Below, one piece after another: positions 190 through 16,249 of a DNA stretch of 34,906 nt. The position numbers and the translations under genes are program-made. The notes below the pieces were generated by a model that was not told the DNA's origin, did no database searches, and worked only from the letters and a program-made list of their open reading frames with translations. Source of the stretch: Agmasoma carcini (nom. nud.) (lineage: Eukaryota > Microsporidia > Thelohaniidae); NCBI GenBank assembly GCA_029232285.1, contig JAOXFI010000060.1, positions 1-34,906 on the forward strand. Reading direction: 5' to 3'. Position 1 is the stretch's first letter; every line of letters begins with the position of its first letter.

Positions 190-632
190 ATTACTATAAT
201 TAGTTAAATTTTAAAAATAGGTATGTAATATTTCAACGTTGATTTGAAATAATTAAAATTGTGGTGAAAACATAAAAAACTTTTGTCTAAAAATTTTCAA
301 TAATTAAAACTTGATGTGAACGATTACAAAATTGGTATGAAATAAAATGAAAATTTTTCCAAAAAAAATGATTAAGAGCTGATATGTAATATTTAAAAAT
401 TGATATGTAATAATTCAAACATAAATGAAATGTTTAAAAATAGATATGTAATAATTCAAACTTAAATGAAATATTTAAAAAAATTTAAAAATTATAAGTT
501 GATATGTAAAGTTATAAAATGGATAAAAAAATTGAAAAAATTTACTCGTTTAAAAATTTATTTAAAACTTGATGTGTAATGTTACAACGTAGGTATATAT
601 TCTTAAAAAATAGATTGAGAAACCCTATAATG
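190..632 (+). repeat. Solo copy of a long transposon terminal repeat
   Basis: This stretch aligns by eye with 11375-11753 and, inverted, with 9496-9860, which are the two ends of a DDE transposon. Shared landmarks in the same order are ATAGGTATGTAATATTT, GTTGATTTGAAAT, TTGTGGTGAAAAC, a repeated GATATGTAAT phrase, AACGTAGGTAT and the outer end GAAACCCTATA at 618-629. No matching transposase is visible beside it. A weaker repeat of the outer end occurs at about 153-200. The interior of such an element would lie upstream, so this could be the right end of an element cut by the window edge, or a solo end. Positions 1-152 hold only AT-rich sequence. Confidence 0.7.
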
Positions 633-2484: not shown

Positions 2485-2639
2485 TTTAAAGATTATTAAA
2501 TAAAAAGATAATTAGAGTATAATTGTGTAAGTATATCTATGATATTTTGTATTTTTATTTCAAGTATTGTATCTAAACTTATTGATAATTTTGATAAATT
2601 TTAAAACTAAAAATCAATATATAACCTGTCACCTAGGAA

Positions 2640-3480
2640 ACAACCATATAATTTTATTTCTCTTAATAAAACTTGAAAACAGTGTAAACCCCGACTTAAA
2701 GAAATCTACAAAGCAATATCACGTTAGAAATACAAGAATGATAAAGACAAAAAGAAAAAGTGATAGTAACAGAAATAAATTGATTTAAAAATGATCAATA
2801 AAAACCAAATAAACTACATACTATAATATTAGTAAAAAATGAAAATTAATCGAATGTGAATTTTCGTGATAAAAGTGTGCACATGTTATTAAAGAAAAAT
2901 TAACAGATTAAAAGTTTTAAACAGTGCTATTAAAGGTAAAAAATTAGTAATTTTAGATGATAAAAGCTTCTTAAACATTTATAATGACTCTAAGTAACAA
3001 AAGGTATAACTTGAAAAAACCAAGGCTTATAAATTAAACAGTTAAATTTGTAAGTATAAAACATTTGATTGGGGTTGTATTATAGAAATGTTGTTAGAAA
3101 TTTGGCGGTTTTTGCATTTAACCTTTTTTGACTATATTATAATTAATTATTATTTAAAATTTCTAATAAAGCGCAAGAAAATTTCTAATTTTCAAATATA
3201 AAATTTTAACAAGACGATTATTCAAATACTAAAAGTAACATGGTTTCATAATTTTTGAATATTGAAGCGTAGAACGGCCTTCACAGTTCCAGATCTCGAC
3301 TTTATTAAACATCTATAAGTTTATTTTTTGCAAAAATTAAGAAATATTGTTTTCGAAAAAAAGGCACATTTATATCAAAAATTTGTGAAATTTGTTTTGA
3401 TATCGATCTCTTATGTTATAGAAGACTAGTATATTCTGTGGTTGATAAATTAAAAAGGTTACAAGGTAAAGAGTGGTCAT
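2640..3480 (+). pseudogene. Tc1-like transposase relic
   Basis: Plus-strand frames, interrupted by many stops and shifts, match the transposase of the copy at 14878-16230. The N-terminal piece at about 2700-2785 reads VRNTRMIKTKRKSDSNRNK, parallel to ENTRMMKKIKEKVVVARK in the other copy. The C-terminal piece at about 3270-3440 keeps the shape of the Tc1 tail: a degraded SQ-PDL-IKHL phrase, then KLRNIVFEKKAHLYQKF. This is the catalytic-Glu region of the DDE domain, and the Glu of NPIE appears to be Lys here. It is certainly dead. Confidence 0.7.
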
Positions 3481-3657
3481 ATATCATATTAAATAAATGT
3501 GTCTGTTTTTTTTTGGTTTTTAAATTGAAAATTTTATAAAAGGGTTTATATAAAATGCAAGTTTTAACAATATAATATTAGTTTGGCTTATTTTGCTTGA
3601 CTTTTTTATTCTTTTCTTTATTTTTTTGGGGTTTCTGGTTTTTTTTTTGAAGTATTG

Positions 3658-4027: not shown

Positions 4028-6360
4028 ATGGCAGTAAAAGGAGAACGTCATATTTTTCTAGATGGTGATATAAAAACATTAAAGAAACCGTTAAACCAAA
4101 CAATATCCCTACAAAATGCTTTGTGGAAATATTGTTCAGGAGATCTAATATACTGGAAGGGGCATAATGATCCTAAGAAGATAATTAAAAAATTAATGTT
4201 TAAATATATTTAAAGAACAACCAGGCAATTTAAAATAACCTGGAAGATGCGTAAAGTTATTAAAACCAATATTAAAATGTTTAAATTGGCAAAATCAAAC
4301 TCTAACATGCTATCAGTATATAGAAAACAACAAAATCTGTAAATATAAATACAACCTCTATAAGAAAAATATAAAAGAAAATATTAAAATTTTTGGTGAA
4401 TCAAACCTGGGAGAAGGCTAAAAAAATTTTAAAAACAAAATTGGACGGGTAAGAAGTGCTATCACACAAGTCCACTCCTTGACAAACAAGAAAGTAAAAA
4501 TTTGTTTAAAACAGGAGATATTATAGAGCATTTGACGGAAAATTACAAAATTTCTATTCTTCTGTATCCTTTAAAGACCTATCTTAAATGAAGAAATAGA
4601 GTTAGAACAATTGTCAATAACAGAGATAGGGCTGATGAGAGTATTACAAAGACTATAAAACAACAAGCTACAGTGACAAACCTAATCTTTGTCGAACTGT
4701 ATAAACTGGCATCAATAAGAACATCCTCTGAATATGTAAGATGTTTTAAAAATTATCTCCTAAAAGCAGTCAGAAATACCTGATAGCATGAAACTGATAT
4801 TATAGTTCTAATCTATAAAAAAGGTGATACCCGGAATACATGTAATTACAGAACTATAAATCTGATAAATGTTCTCATAAAGATCACATCAAAAATTATA
4901 AATATGAAGCTAAATGAATTTTTAGAAACAAAGAAAGATTTTATGAAAGAGCAATTTGGTTTTAGAATGAATAAAGAATGCCCAAGGCAAATAACTGCGC
5001 TCTATGAATTCCTTAAGAGAAGGCAAAATAATAAGTTTAATACAATGGTTAACTTCATTGATTTTAAAAAGCTTTTGATGGGTAGGCTATAACATATTTA
5101 TTGATAAATTAATTGATAAAAAATACCAAAAAGTATAATTTAATTTCTTAAAAATTCATTAAAATTCATTCATATAAGTTGAAATTTGGGGCATGGGTCA
5201 AGCCAGATAAAATTGAAAAGAGTGTCAAGACAAGGATGCCCATTTTCTCACTTTTTTGGATTATATATCAATGACATTTTTGTTGATCAAAATCACATAG
5301 ACATACATTAGTCTAACACCGAATGTAACTGTTTGCTGATGGCTTTGTTCGGATTGCCGAAAATCTTCGAACAATGAACCAAAAGCTTTGTAAGCTAAAA
5401 GAATAAACATTTAATAATCACATAGATATCAATATCAAGAAATGTAGTACCTTTAAGGTTAATCATAATACTTCAAAATATTAGAAGAAATTCCAATGCT
5501 ATATAATAACAAACAAATTCCAGAAATAAAATTGTATTGCTATCTTGGAGTACAGAGGATTTAAAATCTTGACTTAAACTCTATACCAAAATACAGATCA
5601 AAAATCACAAAAGCAAAAATAAAAAGTTTAAATCACTTTTTCCTTTAAAACACTACCCTTAGCAATAAAAAGGATAGTAAACAGTCAAATTATTTTACTT
5701 ATGCTAGCATACACTGTTGATTACATGTTTCAAGATGCAAGAATTTAACTGCTGCTTGAATATGCAATTGGGCTTTAGGGATGTCATTAGGTAAAACCAA
5801 CTTATATGGGGCTCAAGTGTAAAATATATGAATACAATAGTAGTATTTGGTAGATTAAGAACAATAAAGAAATTCACAAATTACAAAGGCATTATTGCTA
5901 AAATAATTTCAATTACAAAAAAGTATATAAAATAAGTCGTTTATCCATATAAAAGAAATCAGTGCACATAATAATGCAATTAAAAATATGATATTTTAAA
6001 AAAAGATTGCTTAACACATGTCTTAAAGAACCATCTCTATTAAATGGAATAAACAATATATTAAAATGTTGAACCTTAACAAACAGATGGGTGTATCAAC
6101 TGAAAAAATTGAGCCTTAATTCTAATATCATCAATAACCTTTGTTTTTAACTTTAAACAACACGTCTTAGCATGTGAAAAGTATAGTAGTATTATTAATA
6201 CTCAACTTACCAACCAGGAAGAACTGGTTAGGGTCGACAATTTAGCTACTATAAATAAACTCCTTAGAAAGAAGTGGCCAGCTTCCGGATAGAAGCATCT
6301 TAAGAGGTCAAATGAGCTATGTTCTTTAATCCTCAAGAAGCAAAAAATTTATATTGTGAA
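4028..6360 (+). mobile_element. Non-LTR (LINE) retrotransposon relic
   Basis: Plus-strand frames carry reverse-transcriptase blocks in the normal order. They are a YKKGD-NYR-INL-NVLIK phrase at about 4810-4890, EQFGF-MN-IDFKK at 4949-5070, RQGCPFSHFFGLYINDI at about 5227-5280, and a degraded VFADGFVRIAE at about 5330-5360, equivalent to the box holding the catalytic FADD. Frameshifts and stops separate the blocks. No terminal repeats are visible, as expected for a LINE. The YKKGD-NYRPI phrasing resembles R4/Dong-type and related elements reported in microsporidia, but I cannot settle the clade. Limits are approximate: the 5' edge is the open frame starting at 4028 and the 3' edge is where conserved-looking sequence fades. 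Confidence 0.75.
4780..5640 (+). pseudogene. LINE reverse-transcriptase domain, broken
   Basis: This is the recognisable RT core of the LINE relic. It reads through at least three frames and contains stops. The 62-codon open frame at 4904-5092 is the longest surviving piece and covers the EQFGF to IDF blocks (palm and fingers). The motif that should carry the catalytic FADD reads FADG, so one catalytic Asp is lost as well. Confidence 0.75.
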
Positions 6361-8415: not shown

Positions 8416-8889
8416 TCAATACAGAGACCTGGTTTACCAGAATGAATTGTGTTATCTAATTTCTGTCTATCTTTTCTTGACCCTTGGCAAATTAAAACCT
8501 GTTATAATTAATCAATTTTTTCTATTATGAAACAATGTAAATCTGTACTCTCCACAATGCTTACCTGTTCTATTATATGTTAAATGTGAACATATAAAAA
8601 TATTATTCTTACTATTGGTCTAAGTTATAATTTTTATTGCAACGTTAATAAGAATGCTATTCTTTGTCAAATGATTTCATTATTGTGGTATTATGAGGCG
8701 ACCCTTTTTTTTACTGTTAGTGACCCCTTTACACCACATAATATTTCTTTAAAGTTGAAAAAATTATGGGGTTAATTTTTTGTATTTAATTCATTTTGGC
8801 GGGAAAATGATTTTGAATAATGAGATGGTATTACCAAATAAATCAAAATATCACATATTATAATCAATAAAACTACTTAATAATAATAT

Positions 8890-9490
8890 TCATTTTTTAA
8901 ATCCTTCCTTTAGAAACAACTAGTATTTGGCTTGTTTTGAGATCAAATATTTCAACATTATAAAGATCTAAAATCTTGATAACTTCTCTGTTTCAAAAAC
9001 CGCCAAATTCTTCTTTTCTTGTAAAACGATTATTGTCAAAGTCTTTCCTTAATAAAACAAGATCGCCCAGTTGAATTTCTATTCTATAAAATTACTATCG
9101 TTATTCTTTATAATGAGTTATTGTAAGTGCTAAAGTGTTTCTGCTACCATGTCATGATCTATATTCGAATTTTAAAATAAATTATCATTAAAACCGTATT
9201 TGAACAATTCAAAACAGTTTATTGCTCCATCATTGTTAAGTTTAATGGAAGCATTGATTAAGTTAGAACCAGGATGCTTTTAAAACAAAATAAATAGAAA
9301 TTAAAAGGTTGCTTTGCGAGAAATGGTGTTAAAATCAAATAAAACATATTCTAAAAATAAAATAGATTTTTTAAAATTTATTCTTTTAAACACTTTTCTA
9401 TTCGCCTTTTATCTCTCTGATTAAGCCTTCCTACCTGTCCCTGGCTTTTTAGATATCTTGTCCTACGTGTACTGGGTGAACTAAAAATTT
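8890..9490 (-). pseudogene. Integrase relic, C-terminal part
   Basis: On the other side of the inserted transposon the minus strand continues the integrase. SQGQVGRLNQRDKRRIEK (about 9395-9450) corresponds to the SQGQVER-LN box that carries the catalytic Glu; here it reads Gly, so the enzyme is dead even apart from stops. Further on, RIEIQLGDLVLLRKDFDN and FTRKEEFGG (about 9000-9095) match the GPY-type C-terminal region (GDLV-LR ... GP). DLKTSQILVVSKGRI follows. Order and strand agree with the block at 11760-12300, showing one gene split by insertion. Confidence 0.7.
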
Positions 9491-9495
9491 ATATA

Positions 9496-9860
9496 TAGGG
9501 TTTCTTTATCTATTTTTTCAGATTACATACCTACGTTTTAACATTTCACATCAAGCTTTAAATATTTTTTTCTTTATTTTCTATCCATTTTTAGATATTA
9601 CATATCGACTTATAAATTTTAAATTCTTCGAATTTTTTTAAATATTACATACCTATTTTAAACATTATGTATCAACTGTCAATCTTAATTTTTAGGTAAA
9701 ATTTTCATAATATTTCATACTAATTTTTAAATCGTTAACATCAATCATTAAGAATTTCTGACAAAAATTCTTCATGTTTTTACCACAATTTTATATATTT
9801 CGAATCAACGTTTAGATATTACCTACCTATTTTTAAATATAATTTATAAAAATAATATAT
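9496..9860 (-). repeat. Left long terminal inverted repeat
   Basis: This is the inverse of 11375-11753 over about 365 bp with scattered differences: AACGTAGGTATGTAATC at the outer part, then ATACCTACT-type phrases, ACCACAATTTTA and ATTACCTACCTATTTTTAAATA at the inner edge. Within it the phrase for GATATGTAAT recurs every 20-30 bp, so the terminal repeat is itself built from degenerate short repeats. Confidence 0.75.
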
Positions 9861-10119
9861 TGTTAGTGGTATATATTACATAAAAATTTGAACAAGTCAT
9901 ACCAGAATATATTGATGACTGATTGTCCATAATATAGTTAACTATTCTAAACAAGAAACATTATTTCAAGCTGATTTAATTACACTCAGTCGAATATATA
10001 TTTTTAAATAATTTTCATTTGGTTGTCCACCACGCTAAGTTTCACGTCAAAAGAATGAGTGTATTTAGATCATTTTTCTTCATTGCTTGTATGGTTAATA
10101 TGACAGAATATATTTATTC

Positions 10120-11197
10120 AAGAATAGTTTTTTTTTGCAATTGACTTATCCAAATATCTGAGCATCTTTCTAAAATAACCATCACAATCATCAGAAGTTA
10201 AATGATTAAATCCGTTGGTAATCAATCCACTAAGCTCTGTCTCATTTAAAGTCTCGCCTTTCAGAACAAAATTCTTCCTTTTACTAAAGCAATTTTTAAT
10301 AGGGTTAAAAAAAGGTGAATAAGTAGGTAAGTATACTAGCTCTAGTCCATCTAGTGCTATAACACCTTCTAAGCCTTTTCTGAATGAATCTTTGTATTAT
10401 CTAAAATGAAAATAGGGTTTGAAATACCATTGACTAAACACTTATATCTAAGTGCAAGAGACAGGTCCTAAAACCTTCACTCTAAACGCTTTGTTTTGTA
10501 TGTCATTAAAAAGCATACCGTGTTTATTCATAGCGGTAACACCGAAATGTTCTTAGATTTGGTTCCGGGATCATTTACATAGGAAGATGTTCCCACCGAA
10601 GATCTTTCACGTTTAGGTCTACTGACAACGGAAACATCGACTTCATCAATAAAGACAAGGTTTTTGTAATTGTAGGTTAGGAGGAGCTCTTTAAAATTTG
10701 TAGCATAGACTGTTTTTTTTTCTTTAGAATTTTCACAGTTTCTCCTCTCAGGAACTAAATTTATCTGTTTAAGGGTATAGTAAAATCTTTTAAGATACTT
10801 GTCTAATGTTGAAATTTCTACTGATATACAAAAAAATCATACACACACCTTCTTAATTTTTTTAAAGTCAATAGTGGATTTTCGTCAATCCAAGATAAAA
10901 TTATATCTATTTGATAAGATGTTAATTTTGACCGTCTATCACCACCTTTGAAGTTTTTTCTGTCCGAAGATAGATAATCGCAATATTTCTTACAGTATGA
11001 TACGAAAGCATTAGTTCCTTAGCAATTTGTTTATAAATTTTACCTTATATAACCTTCTCGGCTATTCTCGTTTTGTCAATTAGAATAGTTGTTTTATTGT
11101 GTCTTTTCACATCACTGTTTTAAGAAATGTCAACGTTTTCACACTTATCAACTTTTAAAGAATTAGAAATTGAACCTTCATTTTCATTTGGTTCCAT
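10120..11197 (-). pseudogene. DDE transposase relic of the nested element
   Basis: Minus-strand frames read, in order: MEPNENEGSISN (start Met at 11197, or 11353 if the longer open frame counts), and a helix-turn-helix IYKQIAKELMLSYHTVRNI (about 10960-11045). The first catalytic block is NLVFIDEVDVSVVSRPKRE (about 10600-10665). The second is FILDNTKIHSEKA (about 10380-10410), and the third is LVYLPTYSPFFNPIKNCF (about 10285-10345). This is the DD-E pattern of the IS630/Tc1-mariner superfamily. The catalytic Glu of NPIE is Lys, a single GAA-to-AAA change, and there are stops and at least two frame changes. The family normally has about 300-350 residues, consistent with this span. Confidence 0.8.
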
Positions 11198-11374
11198 GAT
11201 TTGAAAATATATATTATTTTTATGTATGAGATTTAAATTGTTATATATATGATATTTTATTTTGTCATGTGTGTTATCATTTTTTACAAAAAAACTATGT
11301 TCTGCATAATATATAACTATTGTTGTTTTTAATAGATTTATGTTTCTTCCCACATATAAAATTTGAAATTTTTA

Positions 11375-11753
11375 ATGATTATGTATAATTATCTAAAAAA
11401 TAGGTAAGTAATATTTAAACGTTGATTCGAAATATCTAAAATTGTGGTGAAAACGTGAAAAACTTTTGTCAGAAATTTTCAAAAGTTTAAAGACTGATGT
11501 TAACGATTTAAAATTGGTATGAAATATTATGAAAATTTTACAAAAATAATTATGATTGACAGTTGATACATAATGTTTAAAATAAGTATGTAATATTTAA
11601 AACTTAAATCCAAAGTTTAAAACTAGGTATCTAAAGTTAAAAAATAGATAGAAAATAAAAAAATTTTACTCGTTTAAAAATTTATTTAAATATTGATTTA
11701 AAATGTTAAAACGTAGGTATGTATAATCTTAAAAAATAGATGAAGAAACCCTA
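11375..11753 (+). repeat. Right long terminal inverted repeat
   Basis: Pairs with 9496-9860 in inverted orientation and with 190-632 in direct orientation. It runs from TCTAAAAAATAGGTAAGTAA at the inner edge to GAAGAAACCCTA at the outer edge. Identity to the solo copy at 190-632 is high over the first 150 bp and lower afterwards. Confidence 0.75.
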
Positions 11754-11759
11754 TAATTA

Positions 11760-12300
11760 AGAAAATATGGTTAATTCCAGAATCTTTTAATATTATCAGA
11801 ATGCAGTACCTTTGGAACGTTATAATGCATAAAAACATGTCTGAGTTTTTCTGCTACTTCAGTACCTGTTTTAGATTTCATAGGATATTTGTATACAATC
11901 TATTATTGTTAAGAGCCACTTAAATATTTCATTGTGTTCTTCATAATGCCTAAGGTCAATACAGTTAATCATATATCGATCATATTTGTACGGACTTGCA
12001 ACACCATTAAAGATTTAATAGTTTGCATAGAATTAAAGTTGAAGAAAGAACAACAATTATTGATAAAAGGATTTATTATATCACAAGATATCCTGTAATT
12101 TCTTTTAGAAATGAGATTACACATCTTTGTATATCTTAAGTGTGATCTTCCGAGCTACTGTTGCATAATTAAATGAATTAGTGTATTTTCATCATTACAC
12201 CCTACTAATTTTGGAGTGTTTCTTTTGTCTCTATGATAGTATAGAGTATCATTGAACAGTTCTATTTTCTATGAAAATTTCTTTTTTGATATTTATCTAG
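11760..12300 (-). pseudogene. Integrase relic, N-terminal part (zinc finger and first catalytic Asps)
   Basis: Minus-strand frames give an HHCC-like zinc-binding region at about 12020-12200 (CNDENTLIHLI, then RSHLRYTKMCNLISK and INNCCSF). The first core strands follow at about 11880-11960 (FKWLLTIIDC, where the family has the first catalytic Asp). Next come KTGTEVAEKLRHVF with one frameshift and VPKVLHSDNIKRF (about 11780-11830), equivalent to the HSDNG-x-EF box with the second Asp. Stops are present. The frame runs directly into the right end of the inserted transposon at 11753. Confidence 0.7.
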
Positions 12301-12457
12301 ATTGTCCGGGTATATTATTTAAGTTTAAAATAATGACAAATATAATTTTTAACAAATATATTATATATGCATAATAAATATACACTGATATGATAGGCAA
12401 GTTTTTAAACTTACCTTAATATAAGTCAAAAACAGGAGGTCGCCTCATAATACGACA

Positions 12458-12792
12458 AAATTAAAAATAAAGAAATATAAATTTGTCATATTTTGTTCTA
12501 AAACGGTTGTTATAAGAATTAAATGTATATTTTTGATAGATATTTTATATTTTAATTTAGGTTTTACATAAAAATTATATTGTCTAGTTTGATTAAAGAC
12601 TTTTTAATATTTTAATATTTTTTAATTTTTAATTTTTAATTTTTAATTTTTTTGCTGTCAAAAATAATATAAATCTATCAAAAATTATTTTTTTAGTAAT
12701 AAATATCTATTTAAAAAACTTAAACCTGGTTAGTTATTTTAATTAAAATTTTAATTTTAATTTATTTATAATTTATTTTTTTAAAAAAAAAT
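12458..12792. other. AT-rich leader of the 501-aa gene
   Basis: Almost pure A/T sequence with a short homopolymer-type repeat (TTTTTAATTTT units at about 12600-12650). No start-proximal CCC motif is seen before the ATG at 12793. Nothing else is recognised. Confidence 0.5.
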
Positions 12793-14298: not shown

Positions 14299-14877
14299 AT
14301 ATTTATTAAATTTTATTTTTATATAAAGAAATTTTCAAAATACACTGGAGGAAAAAACATTTCAATAAATATTATTTTATATTTTTGTATATTGTTTTAT
14401 ATTTGACAAAAGAAAAAAGACTGTTTGACTCCTATTAAATATTAAAAATTTTAATTTGAACTTATAAGAAATATTTCCAAAAAACATTGGCCGTACTCAA
14501 TTCATTAGTGCAAGATATAAACAAAAATATGATAATTTAAAAAAAAGTAAAAGGATTCTTAATTGTATTTAAAAATATATTATGAAAATTTTGTTTTTCA
14601 CACCCTTGAGTTAGCAAAAATCTGTCATCAATGTATTTTTAAGTATCCAATAGTAAAGTATAGTATAATATGAATATTTATTAAGATTTAAGCATAATAT
14701 TCATTTTTGAGTAAATTACAAAAGGAAACTTATTTAAGAAAGATTCGGTTCAGAGACAAAAATTCTTCATATTTAGCTACTTAATTTTTTGTTACAAATG
14801 TTTAGCCATTGTTAAATATTAACGATGAATTAATAACATTTCCACAAGATTTGGGTGTATTAAGGAAGAATTATTTA
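14299..14877. other. No feature recognised
   Basis: AT-rich DNA between the 501-aa gene and the Tc1 copy. I see no frame, RNA or repeat with a partner in the window. Confidence 0.5.
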
Positions 14878-16230
14878 CAGTACTCCAAAAAAACGGGACA
14901 CCCTTAAAAAGTTTGTTTACAAGGTGTAAATTTAAAAAAATTGAGTTTAATTGTATAAGTATATCTATAATATTTTATATAAACTCTTTTAATAATTTTA
15001 ATAAAAACCAATAAAACACCAGACACCTTTATTTAATATGATGTATGGCCTCCTTTTGCTTGATAAATTTTTTAATTTTGTTACTCATAGAATCCACTAG
15101 TGTTCTACAATATAAAGTATCGATATCAGCCCATATTTCACTTATTTTTGATATTAAATGCGCCTCGTTTTCAAAAATAACATTTCTTAGTTTTTGATTT
15201 AAATAAACCCATAGATGTTCTATTAGGTTTAGATCTGGGCTCTGTGAAGGTCATTCTAACACCTCAATGTTCATATATTAAAAAAACTCTGATGACATCT
15301 TACTTTTATGCTTTGGATCATTATTTTGTTAAAATTTATATTATGAAAATGAATTTTCGTGCACTCTCATTTAAATTATTGCTTAATATTTGAGTATAAC
15401 ATAGTGCATTTAAGGTTCTATCTAAAAATATCAAATTTTAATACTATTTCTATTAATATAACTTTAAACAGATATTTTCTTTTTACCAAATTTGAAAGTT
15501 TCATTTATAGGTGTTGATTTGTCTTCTTCAACCCACACCTTTTGCCTCTTAGAGTAATTATAAATGTTAAAAAACGTTCATCTAAAAAATAACATCGCTA
15601 TGTAGTCTTTGCTTTCAAATAGCCACATTTTTGCAATTCTTAATCTGTTAATGAATTGCACATTTGATAATTTTAGCTTAGAAGAAAAATAAACACATCT
15701 AAAATGATTTTTCTTTAAGAAAAGACGCACATTTTTATCACAGATACTTATATTTGATTTGTCTATAATATTTTTTTTGAAATAGTAGCATGTAGCGTAG
15801 GTGTTTTTGTTAATCTTTTTTAATCAATTTAATATTGCTGATATCAATTAATTTTCTTGCCACTACCACCTTTTCTTTTATCTTCTTCATCATTCTTGTA
15901 TTTTCTAACGTGATCTTGTATTGTAGATCTTTTTTAATCGGTTTTTACATTGATTTCGCATATTTAAAACTCCATAGAAAATAGCTGAAAATTAGACCTT
16001 TTTCGAATTCAGAAACATGTTTACCCTTAGGGTATTTGTCTTGTATTTTTTAGGTGTTTGATTTTTTTTATTGGTTTTTAATTAAAAATTTTATCAAAAT
16101 TATTAAAAGAGTTTATATTAAATGCGCGATTTAAAAAAATAAAAAATAACATAGATATACTTGTACAATTATACTCAAATTATTTTTATTTAAAAATTTA
16201 CATTTTTTAAACAAGTTTTTTGGAGAACTG
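14878..16230 (-). mobile_element. Tc1-like transposon (copy 2) with intact ends
   Basis: The element is 1353 bp with ends CAGTACTCCAAAAAAA and, inverted, CAGTTCTCCAAAAAA. TA dinucleotides flank both sides (14876-14877, 16231-16232). The inverted repeats continue inward for about 150-200 bp; both sides contain AATTGTA-AAGTATATCTAT and ACCAATAAAA-CACC phrases. A transposase with stops and shifts is on the minus strand. It is better preserved than copy 1 at 1821-3657. Confidence 0.85.
15035..16060 (-). pseudogene. Tc1-like transposase relic
   Basis: Minus-strand frames give an N-terminal helix-turn-helix-like region (GKHVSEFEKGLIFSYF, about 16005-16045) and a basic linker (KEKVVVARKLID, about 15845-15880). 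The third catalytic box is SQSPDLNPIEHLWVYLNQ (about 15198-15250), with the catalytic Glu intact. A stop codon sits just before SQSPDL where the family has Trp-Pro-Ser (TGA for TGG). The tail LRNVIFENEAHLISKISEIW and a C-terminus ending SNKIKKFIKQK follow normally, near 15045-15190. Frameshifts in the middle hide the first two Asp boxes. Confidence 0.8.
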
Positions 16231-16249
16231 TAAACTAAATATGTCAATT

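What the first reader, a model, noticed from the sequence alone, without database searches (positions are those of the whole stretch)
8684..12457. GINGER-like transposon in a microsporidian: retroviral-type integrase between TGTNR ends
A 20-base terminal repeat (19/20 identical: TGTGGTATTATGAGGCGACC and inverted TGTCGTATTATGAGGCGACC) brackets a minus-strand integrase relic with HHCC-like region, HSDN box, SQGQV-x-R-LN box and a GDLVLLR region. No LTR, gag or RT is seen. This is the defining combination of GINGER cut-and-paste elements, described mainly from animals. If real, it is a new TE lineage or a horizontal transfer from a host.
Basis: partly seen in the sequence, partly recalled or inferred. 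Interest (0 to 1): 0.75.

Follow-up and report, generated by a model that had tools for sequence, protein, structure and literature searches.

The report
Dead integrase-type transposon, microsporidian genome
The window holds the decayed remains of a small jumping gene that, as far as its anatomy tells, moved by cut-and-paste with a retrovirus-like integrase and without reverse transcription, one of at least two such families in this parasite's genome.

Summary
The window (microsporidian genome) carries a TIR-bounded element at 8684-12457 with a broken, minus-strand, retroviral-type integrase. A Tc1/mariner-like element (9498-11751) is nested in it. The genome holds five copies of this family A (C59, C3, C68, C30, C17; best matches 66-73% identical to C3), all broken. 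The C3 copy is complete in 1,528 bp with a 5-bp target duplication and no room for RT or LTRs. A second family B (about 2 kb, TGTTG ends, at least six copies) has the same plan. Perfect 5-bp duplications flank 4 of 9 two-ended copies (P 1.2e-8), but not the window copy. The protein aligns end to end with intact 425-458-aa proteins; in a tree, family A joins Dictyocoela, Enteropsectra, Hamiltosporidium and unnamed records (99/98). One intact relative is predicted as a full integrase. Best reading: an extinct Ginger2/Tdd-like cut-and-paste lineage. Limits: family A TIRs are clear over only 20 bp in 3 of 4 copies; no labelled Ginger protein was available; grouping with both Ty3-like rows is not rejected (p 0.075). 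Transfer from the host is not supported.

The parts
8684..12457 (-). Family A element (integrase-type DNA transposon relic), 3,774 bp including a 2,254-bp nested insert
   Evidence: TIR pair and DNA matches to the C3 (1,528 bp) and C68 copies
12438..12457 (-). 5' terminal inverted repeat (TGTCG...)
   Evidence: 19 of 20 identical to the other end
8684..8703 (+). 3' terminal inverted repeat (TGTGG...)
11972..12268 (-). Integrase block 1a: zinc-binding (H2C2) region, broken
   Evidence: one frame with one stop; aligned to intact relatives
11774..12014 (-). Integrase block 1b: first part of the catalytic core incl. the HSDN box, in two frames, broken
9381..9488 (-). Integrase block 2a: end of the catalytic core (SQGQV box), broken
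8900..9091 (-). Integrase block 2b: C-terminal domain (GDLVLLR region), broken
9498..11751 (-). Nested Tc1/mariner-like element relic, about 360-377-bp inverted ends, flanked by TA
   Evidence: ends and flanks; DDE_3 (PF13358) E 1.2e-7 for 10121-10396
8679..8683 (.). Left flank pentamer; matches the right flank at 2 of 5
12458..12462 (.). Right flank pentamer; no target duplication kept in this copy

Best explanation
The stretch 8684-12457 is a dead copy of a small cut-and-paste DNA transposon of the Ginger2/Tdd type. Without the later insert it would be about 1.5 kb, like the C3 copy: TGTNR inverted ends around one gene of roughly 430 codons for a stand-alone integrase-type transposase (N-terminal extension, H2C2 zinc domain, DD35E RNase-H core, C-terminal domain). 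Inferred mechanism: transposase multimers bind the ends, process the 3' ends and join them to target DNA with a 5-bp stagger, which repair turns into a 5-bp duplication; no RNA step. Shown here: ends, copies, the architecture of intact relatives, 5-bp duplications at part of the copies. Inferred: DNA-only transposition, end binding, and excision. All five copies found are broken. A Tc1/mariner-like element later landed in the window copy.
Against: Three of the four two-ended A copies, the window's among them, have no 5-bp duplication (2 of 5 matches each). Of the four duplications, two rest on an end that is decayed and was placed by alignment (C14, C63), and one is A5 (C27). Family A TIRs: beyond 20 bp no inverted similarity above chance in 3 of 4 copies. 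No labelled Ginger protein, so the name rests on anatomy and published features. The protein searches cannot return proteins over 1.75 times the query length, so RT-bearing polyproteins could not appear. Holding A with both Ty3-like rows is not rejected (p 0.075).
Confidence: 0.88

Rival explanations
1. It is a Ty3/gypsy LTR retrotransposon relic that lost gag, RT and LTRs, and the inverted ends are coincidence or a later product.
For: The genome has Ty3-like elements with RT and integrase in one open frame (C21 757 aa, C37 658 aa). Some relatives are annotated as Tf2-6, Gag-Pol or Pro-Pol polyprotein. Holding A with both Ty3-like rows is not rejected (p 0.075).
Against: The same ends bound related DNA at several sites; C3 is complete in 1,528 bp; a second family shares the plan; relatives look like stand-alone ORFs with a conserved first Met; the free tree places A elsewhere.
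Confidence: 0.05
2. An integrase-derived host gene (as KRBA2 or GIN1) was copied about the genome, and the inverted ends are edges of those copies.
For: Some relatives carry the automatic name KRAB-A domain-containing protein 2.
Against: Flanks of the copies share only scattered repeats (4 pairs among 19 flanks), the ends are TGTNR, 5-bp duplications occur, and all five copies found are broken.
Confidence: 0.03
3. A recent transfer of a Ginger element from the animal host.
For: In another clade of the tree a Dictyocoela protein groups with Octopus proteins, so such transfers may occur.
Against: Family A groups with microsporidian and unnamed proteins, with no named animal among the rows used; the copies are old (best matches 66-73% identical to C3). 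The unnamed records could include host DNA.
Confidence: 0.04

Closest known systems
Ginger2/Tdd DNA transposons (TDD-4, TDD-5, animal Ginger2; Bao et al. 2010, PMC2836005, parts 1-3 of 5 read)
   Same: TGTNR ends, lone H2C2 plus DDE integrase-type transposase, no RT or LTR, AT-rich targets; TDD-4/5 also have 5-bp duplications; no GPY/F seen by eye in the relatives
   Different: Published autonomous elements are 2.75-6.7 kb with 45-297-bp TIRs (animal ones 4-bp duplications, RTATAY); family A is 1.53 kb with TIRs clear over 20 bp, family B about 2 kb with inverted ends of at least 140 bp
Ginger1 (same paper)
   Same: Integrase-type transposase, TGTNR ends
   Different: Ginger1 has 4-bp CCGG/CCGT duplications, GPY/F, 500-800 aa and in nearly all cases OTU or Ulp1 domains; here 5-bp, mostly A+T duplications and relatives of 425-458 aa
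Dictyocoela muelleri 'Transposon Tf2-6 polyprotein' P0001 (425 aa) and Enteropsectra breve P0041 (452 aa)
   Same: Same protein family; P0001 aligned end to end with family A; both Microsporidia
   Different: Intact ORFs; their flanking DNA could not be read here, so TIRs and duplications are untested
KRBA2, said in PMC13359818 (one passage read) to be thought to come from Ginger2
   Same: Integrase-type protein; KRBA2-named Octopus and Dictyocoela proteins are among the hits
   Different: They form another clade than family A; host gene in mammals, not a transposon
Ty3 and foamy-virus integrases (7q5b, 3oy9)
   Same: Same domain order and fold by prediction
   Different: Those are parts of reverse-transcribing elements
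Ginger2-like integrase of sesarmid nimaviruses (PMC10871703, passages read)
   Same: Ginger2-type enzyme with TIRs and AT-rich target
   Different: There it serves a 265-285-kb viral genome

Membership tests
Ginger2/Tdd | Ends follow TGTNR | tested here: met
   A: 8 of 8 ends of the four two-ended copies (TGTGG or TGTCG); B: TGTTG at 8 of 10 ends, two decayed
Ginger2/Tdd | Inverted repeats of about 45-297 bp (family A) | tested here: inconclusive
   Positions 21-80: at chance in C59 (177 of 300 shuffles as good), C3 (106), C17 (95); above all 300 in C68. Published lengths:
Ginger2/Tdd | Inverted repeats of about 45-297 bp (family B) | tested here: met
   Positions 21-140 above 300 of 300 shuffles in 5 of 5 two-ended copies
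Ginger2/Tdd | 4-bp duplication (animal Ginger2) or 5-bp (TDD-4/5) | tested here: met
   5-bp in 4 of 9 two-ended copies, P 1.2e-8; at 4 bp only C27 matches, at 3 bp C27 and C68 of A; window copy none. RTATAY preference not tested
Ginger2/Tdd | H2C2 zinc finger and DDE core in the transposase | tested here: met
   Relatives: Integrase_H2C2 over its cut-off in 5 of 7 and rve in 7 of 7 scanned; positions traced into family A pieces
Ginger2/Tdd | No GPY/F and no YPYY motif | tested here: inconclusive
   No GPY/F seen by eye; the N-terminal stretch has spaced Y/F and P residues that might be YPYY-like; the defining figure is not held
Ginger2/Tdd | No RT, RNase H or LTR in the element | tested here: met
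   C3 copy complete in 1,528 bp; the window's RT relic lies outside the element
Ginger2/Tdd | Transposase groups with Ginger2 in a tree | not testable with these tools
   No labelled Ginger2 sequence was obtained; KRBA2-named proteins form another clade
Ginger1 | CCGG or CCGT 4-bp duplication | tested here: not met
   Duplications found: TTAAT, TCTTT, AAAAA, GTATA
Ginger1 | Transposase of 500-800 aa, nearly always with OTU or Ulp1 domain | tested here: not met
   Close relatives P0001-P0006 are 425-458 aa; the 3 of them scanned match integrase families and no OTU or Ulp1
Ty3/gypsy LTR retrotransposon | Long terminal direct repeats and RT in the same unit | tested here: not met
   Inverted ends and no room for RT in the 1,528-bp C3 copy
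Ty3/gypsy LTR retrotransposon | Integrase groups with RT-linked Ty3 integrases | tested here: inconclusive
   Free tree places A elsewhere; forced grouping p 0.012 with C21, 0.075 with C21 and C37; the Ty3-like rows are long branches
IS481EU | IS481-like transposase, duplications of about 4, 15 or 25 bp | not tested
   Features from PMC10045372, part 1 of 5 read; no sequence at hand

The most novel reading that the evidence does not exclude
Microsporidia and some arbuscular mycorrhizal fungi carry their own, unrecognised group of compact (1.5-2 kb) integrase-type cut-and-paste transposons with 5-bp duplications, in several deep lineages, arisen separately from Ginger1 and Ginger2. Their proteins have been filed as LTR-retrotransposon polyproteins or KRBA2, so that published microsporidian LTR counts include DNA transposons.
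Probability: 0.25. Interest if true: 0.65.

Novelty: new member of a known kind. Interest (0 to 1): 0.48.

Why it matters
In the passages I read of a broad microsporidian TE survey (PMC4202319), the DNA transposons are Mariner/Tc1, piggyBac and Merlin, and some LTR families were accepted on partial sequence or an integrase domain alone. A lone-integrase DNA transposon lineage in microsporidia would add another class and show that an integrase domain is no proof of an LTR element. It also adds compact elements to the old question of how DNA transposons and LTR retrotransposons came to share their integrase.

Tried and rejected
Pfam on two one-frame stretches of the window integrase with X at stops: no hit. 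PF00665 over the whole genome missed the family: 4 hits, none in the five copies. First protein search with a C68 frame piece: 33 candidates, none at E <= 0.01. PDB search with the decayed profile: 2 chance-level hits. Viral collection: A2 gave one relative of 92 stretches, L041 (28% identity), IS-like by my reading of its surroundings, dropped; A4 gave none of 44; the TIR core gave 5 stretches with one match each, not examined. Prokaryote genomes: none of 30 stretches. The microsporidian SSU rRNA model had no hit in this assembly, 5 of 64 candidates scored, so the label 'microsporidian' rests on PF17018 MICSWaP (E 2.1e-31, 0 of 14 controls; that this is a spore-wall family is recalled) and on the relatives. 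The eS24 gene did not decide it: its best PDB match is not one I know as microsporidian. First structure job, 6 rows: poor (mean pLDDT 56.7); the second, 52 rows, is used. Family B ends were first placed too far in, at TGTTAATATT, then moved out to TGTTG by comparing copies. A count without the two copies that have a decayed end leaves 2 duplications in 7 copies (C3 and C27, the latter A5). The TGTNR-pair screen of 11 loci gave about chance numbers at most loci and missed C17. Six duplication lengths were tried; its P value is not corrected for that.

Full report
WHAT WAS CLAIMED AND WHAT IS THERE. Both ends are present at 8684-8703 and 12438-12457, 19 of 20 identical. The window is contig C59 of a 4.26-Mb, 69-contig assembly. 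The 20-mer has five matches there at up to 3 mismatches, against 0 for the reversed pattern. Two pairs are inverted and close: C59 (3,774 bp end to end) and C3 (1,528 bp). The genome is microsporidian: family PF17018 (MICSWaP; spore wall, recalled) matches at E 2.1e-31 and in none of 14 control genomes. The window also encodes ordinary genes, such as thymidylate synthase, ribonucleotide reductase small chain and histidyl-tRNA synthetase.

COPIES. A DNA search with the C3 copy finds five copies: C3, C59, C68, C30 and C17; the best match of each other copy is 66-73% identical to C3. C59 and C68 match each other at about 77%. Both ends were placed in four; in C30 I found only the 3' end. No copy has an intact frame. 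In the window copy a 2,254-bp element (9498-11751) is nested; it has inverted ends of about 360-377 bp and TA on both sides, and a DDE_3 match, E 1.2e-7, so it is Tc1/mariner-like. The C68 copy has its own insert, about 0.57 kb, between repeats of TTAAGCCTTTCTAC. Up to 1 kb of flank on both sides of the nine two-ended copies, and on one side of C30, share only four repeat pairs; one of them (C14 and C63 of family B) starts near an element end.

A SECOND FAMILY. Searching the genome with the intact relative P0005 gave 18 matches, among them relics outside family A. A screen and then a comparison of copies showed family B: TGTTG ends, 1,946-2,068 bp. A DNA search with the C14 copy finds C63, C27, C68, C29 and C9 over most of the length, a part in C21, and short end pieces. 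Both ends were placed in five. Their inverted similarity reaches at least position 140: better than 300 of 300 shuffles in 5 of 5. In family A positions 21-80 are at chance in C59, C3 and C17 and above all shuffles in C68, so its TIR is 20 bp as far as it can be read, and may once have been longer.

TARGET DUPLICATIONS. For the nine two-ended copies, perfect duplications of 5 bp occur in four: C3 (A) and C14, C27, C63 (B). Random positions in the same loci give 0.0032 per copy, so P(4 or more of 9) = 1.2e-8; no copy matches at 6-8 bp, one at 4 bp (C27), two at 3 bp (C27, C68 of A). The other five match at 2 of 5 positions, and the window copy is among them. Two of the four rest on an end placed by alignment because the terminal TGT is decayed (C14, C63), and the C27 one is A5.

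TREE. Forty-two rows were used: 35 of the 91 proteins found, three rows of family A, two of family B, and two Ty3-like integrases of this genome. Family A is one clade (100/100) inside a set of 20 rows (99/98) with Dictyocoela, Enteropsectra, Hamiltosporidium and unnamed proteins. Family B joins another Dictyocoela protein (100/99). Octopus KRBA2-named proteins join a third Dictyocoela protein (100/100). Holding A and B as one clade is rejected (p 1e-6), so at least two deep lineages lived here. Holding A with C21 is rejected at p 0.012; with C21 and C37 it is not (p 0.075). The Ty3-like rows are long branches, two of the three family A rows fill under half of the columns, and no labelled Ginger row was at hand.

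MECHANISM. Shown: inverted TGTNR ends, one integrase-type gene, several sites, 5-bp duplications at part of the copies. Inferred from retroviral and Ty3 integrases: multimer binding at the ends, 3' processing and a 5-bp staggered strand transfer. Not shown: DNA-only transposition itself, and excision, which Bao et al. call unknown for Ginger1.

COMPARISON. Bao et al. (PMC2836005; parts 1-3 of 5 read, passages) describe Ginger1 (CCGG/CCGT, TIR 40-270 bp, GPY/F) and Ginger2/Tdd (TGTNR, TIR 45-297 bp, 4-bp duplications, 5 bp in TDD-4/5, no GPY/F). Families A and B fit Ginger2/Tdd in ends, in the Tdd length of the duplication, in domain content and in lack of RT; B also in TIR length, A not clearly. 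So they work like Ginger2/Tdd; that they are members is likely but not proved. I found no report of such elements in microsporidia in the listings, which show the top of longer lists (for instance 20 of 135 papers and 15 of 204), nor in passages of PMC4202319, PMC7313128, PMC12558613 and PMC8101967. That speaks only for an open-access library searched by words.

VERDICT. A real and sound observation: an extinct Ginger2/Tdd-like family, one of at least two in this genome. Interest is moderate: a known kind in a group where I found it unreported, with a testable hint that some microsporidian 'LTR' annotations are DNA transposons.

Noticed in passing
window 4817-5293 (+): Reverse-transcriptase relic (PF00078, E 3.8e-8, 7 stops), LINE-like by my reading and similar to RT frames on C48; not part of the element.
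   Followed up: partly
window 2504-3521 and 14876-16232: Two inverted relics of another Tc1-like element; the second has TACAGT-type ends and a PSQSPDLNLIEHLW stretch on the minus strand.
   Followed up: partly
window 202-630: Fragment of the inverted end of the nested Tc1/mariner-like family.
   Followed up: no
G000 C68:112333-112899 (in L007): About 0.57-kb insert in the C68 copy between 14-bp repeats TTAAGCCTTTCTAC, near the part of the element that was also hit in the window copy; identity unknown.
   Followed up: no
G000 C14:103250-103333 (L069): A third integrase relic, 61% identical to P0005 over 30 residues, for which the screen gave no TIR pair above chance.
   Followed up: partly
P0012 (Dictyocoela) with P0009, P0015 (Octopus sinensis): KRBA2-named integrases of a microsporidian and a mollusc fall in one clade (100/100): a candidate for horizontal transfer or for contamination of an assembly.
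   Followed up: no
P0018, P0053, P0057, P0058, P0069: A clade of integrases from Acaulospora and unnamed records, with Paraglomus, Cetraspora and Gigaspora hits: possible Ginger-like elements of mycorrhizal fungi.
   Followed up: no
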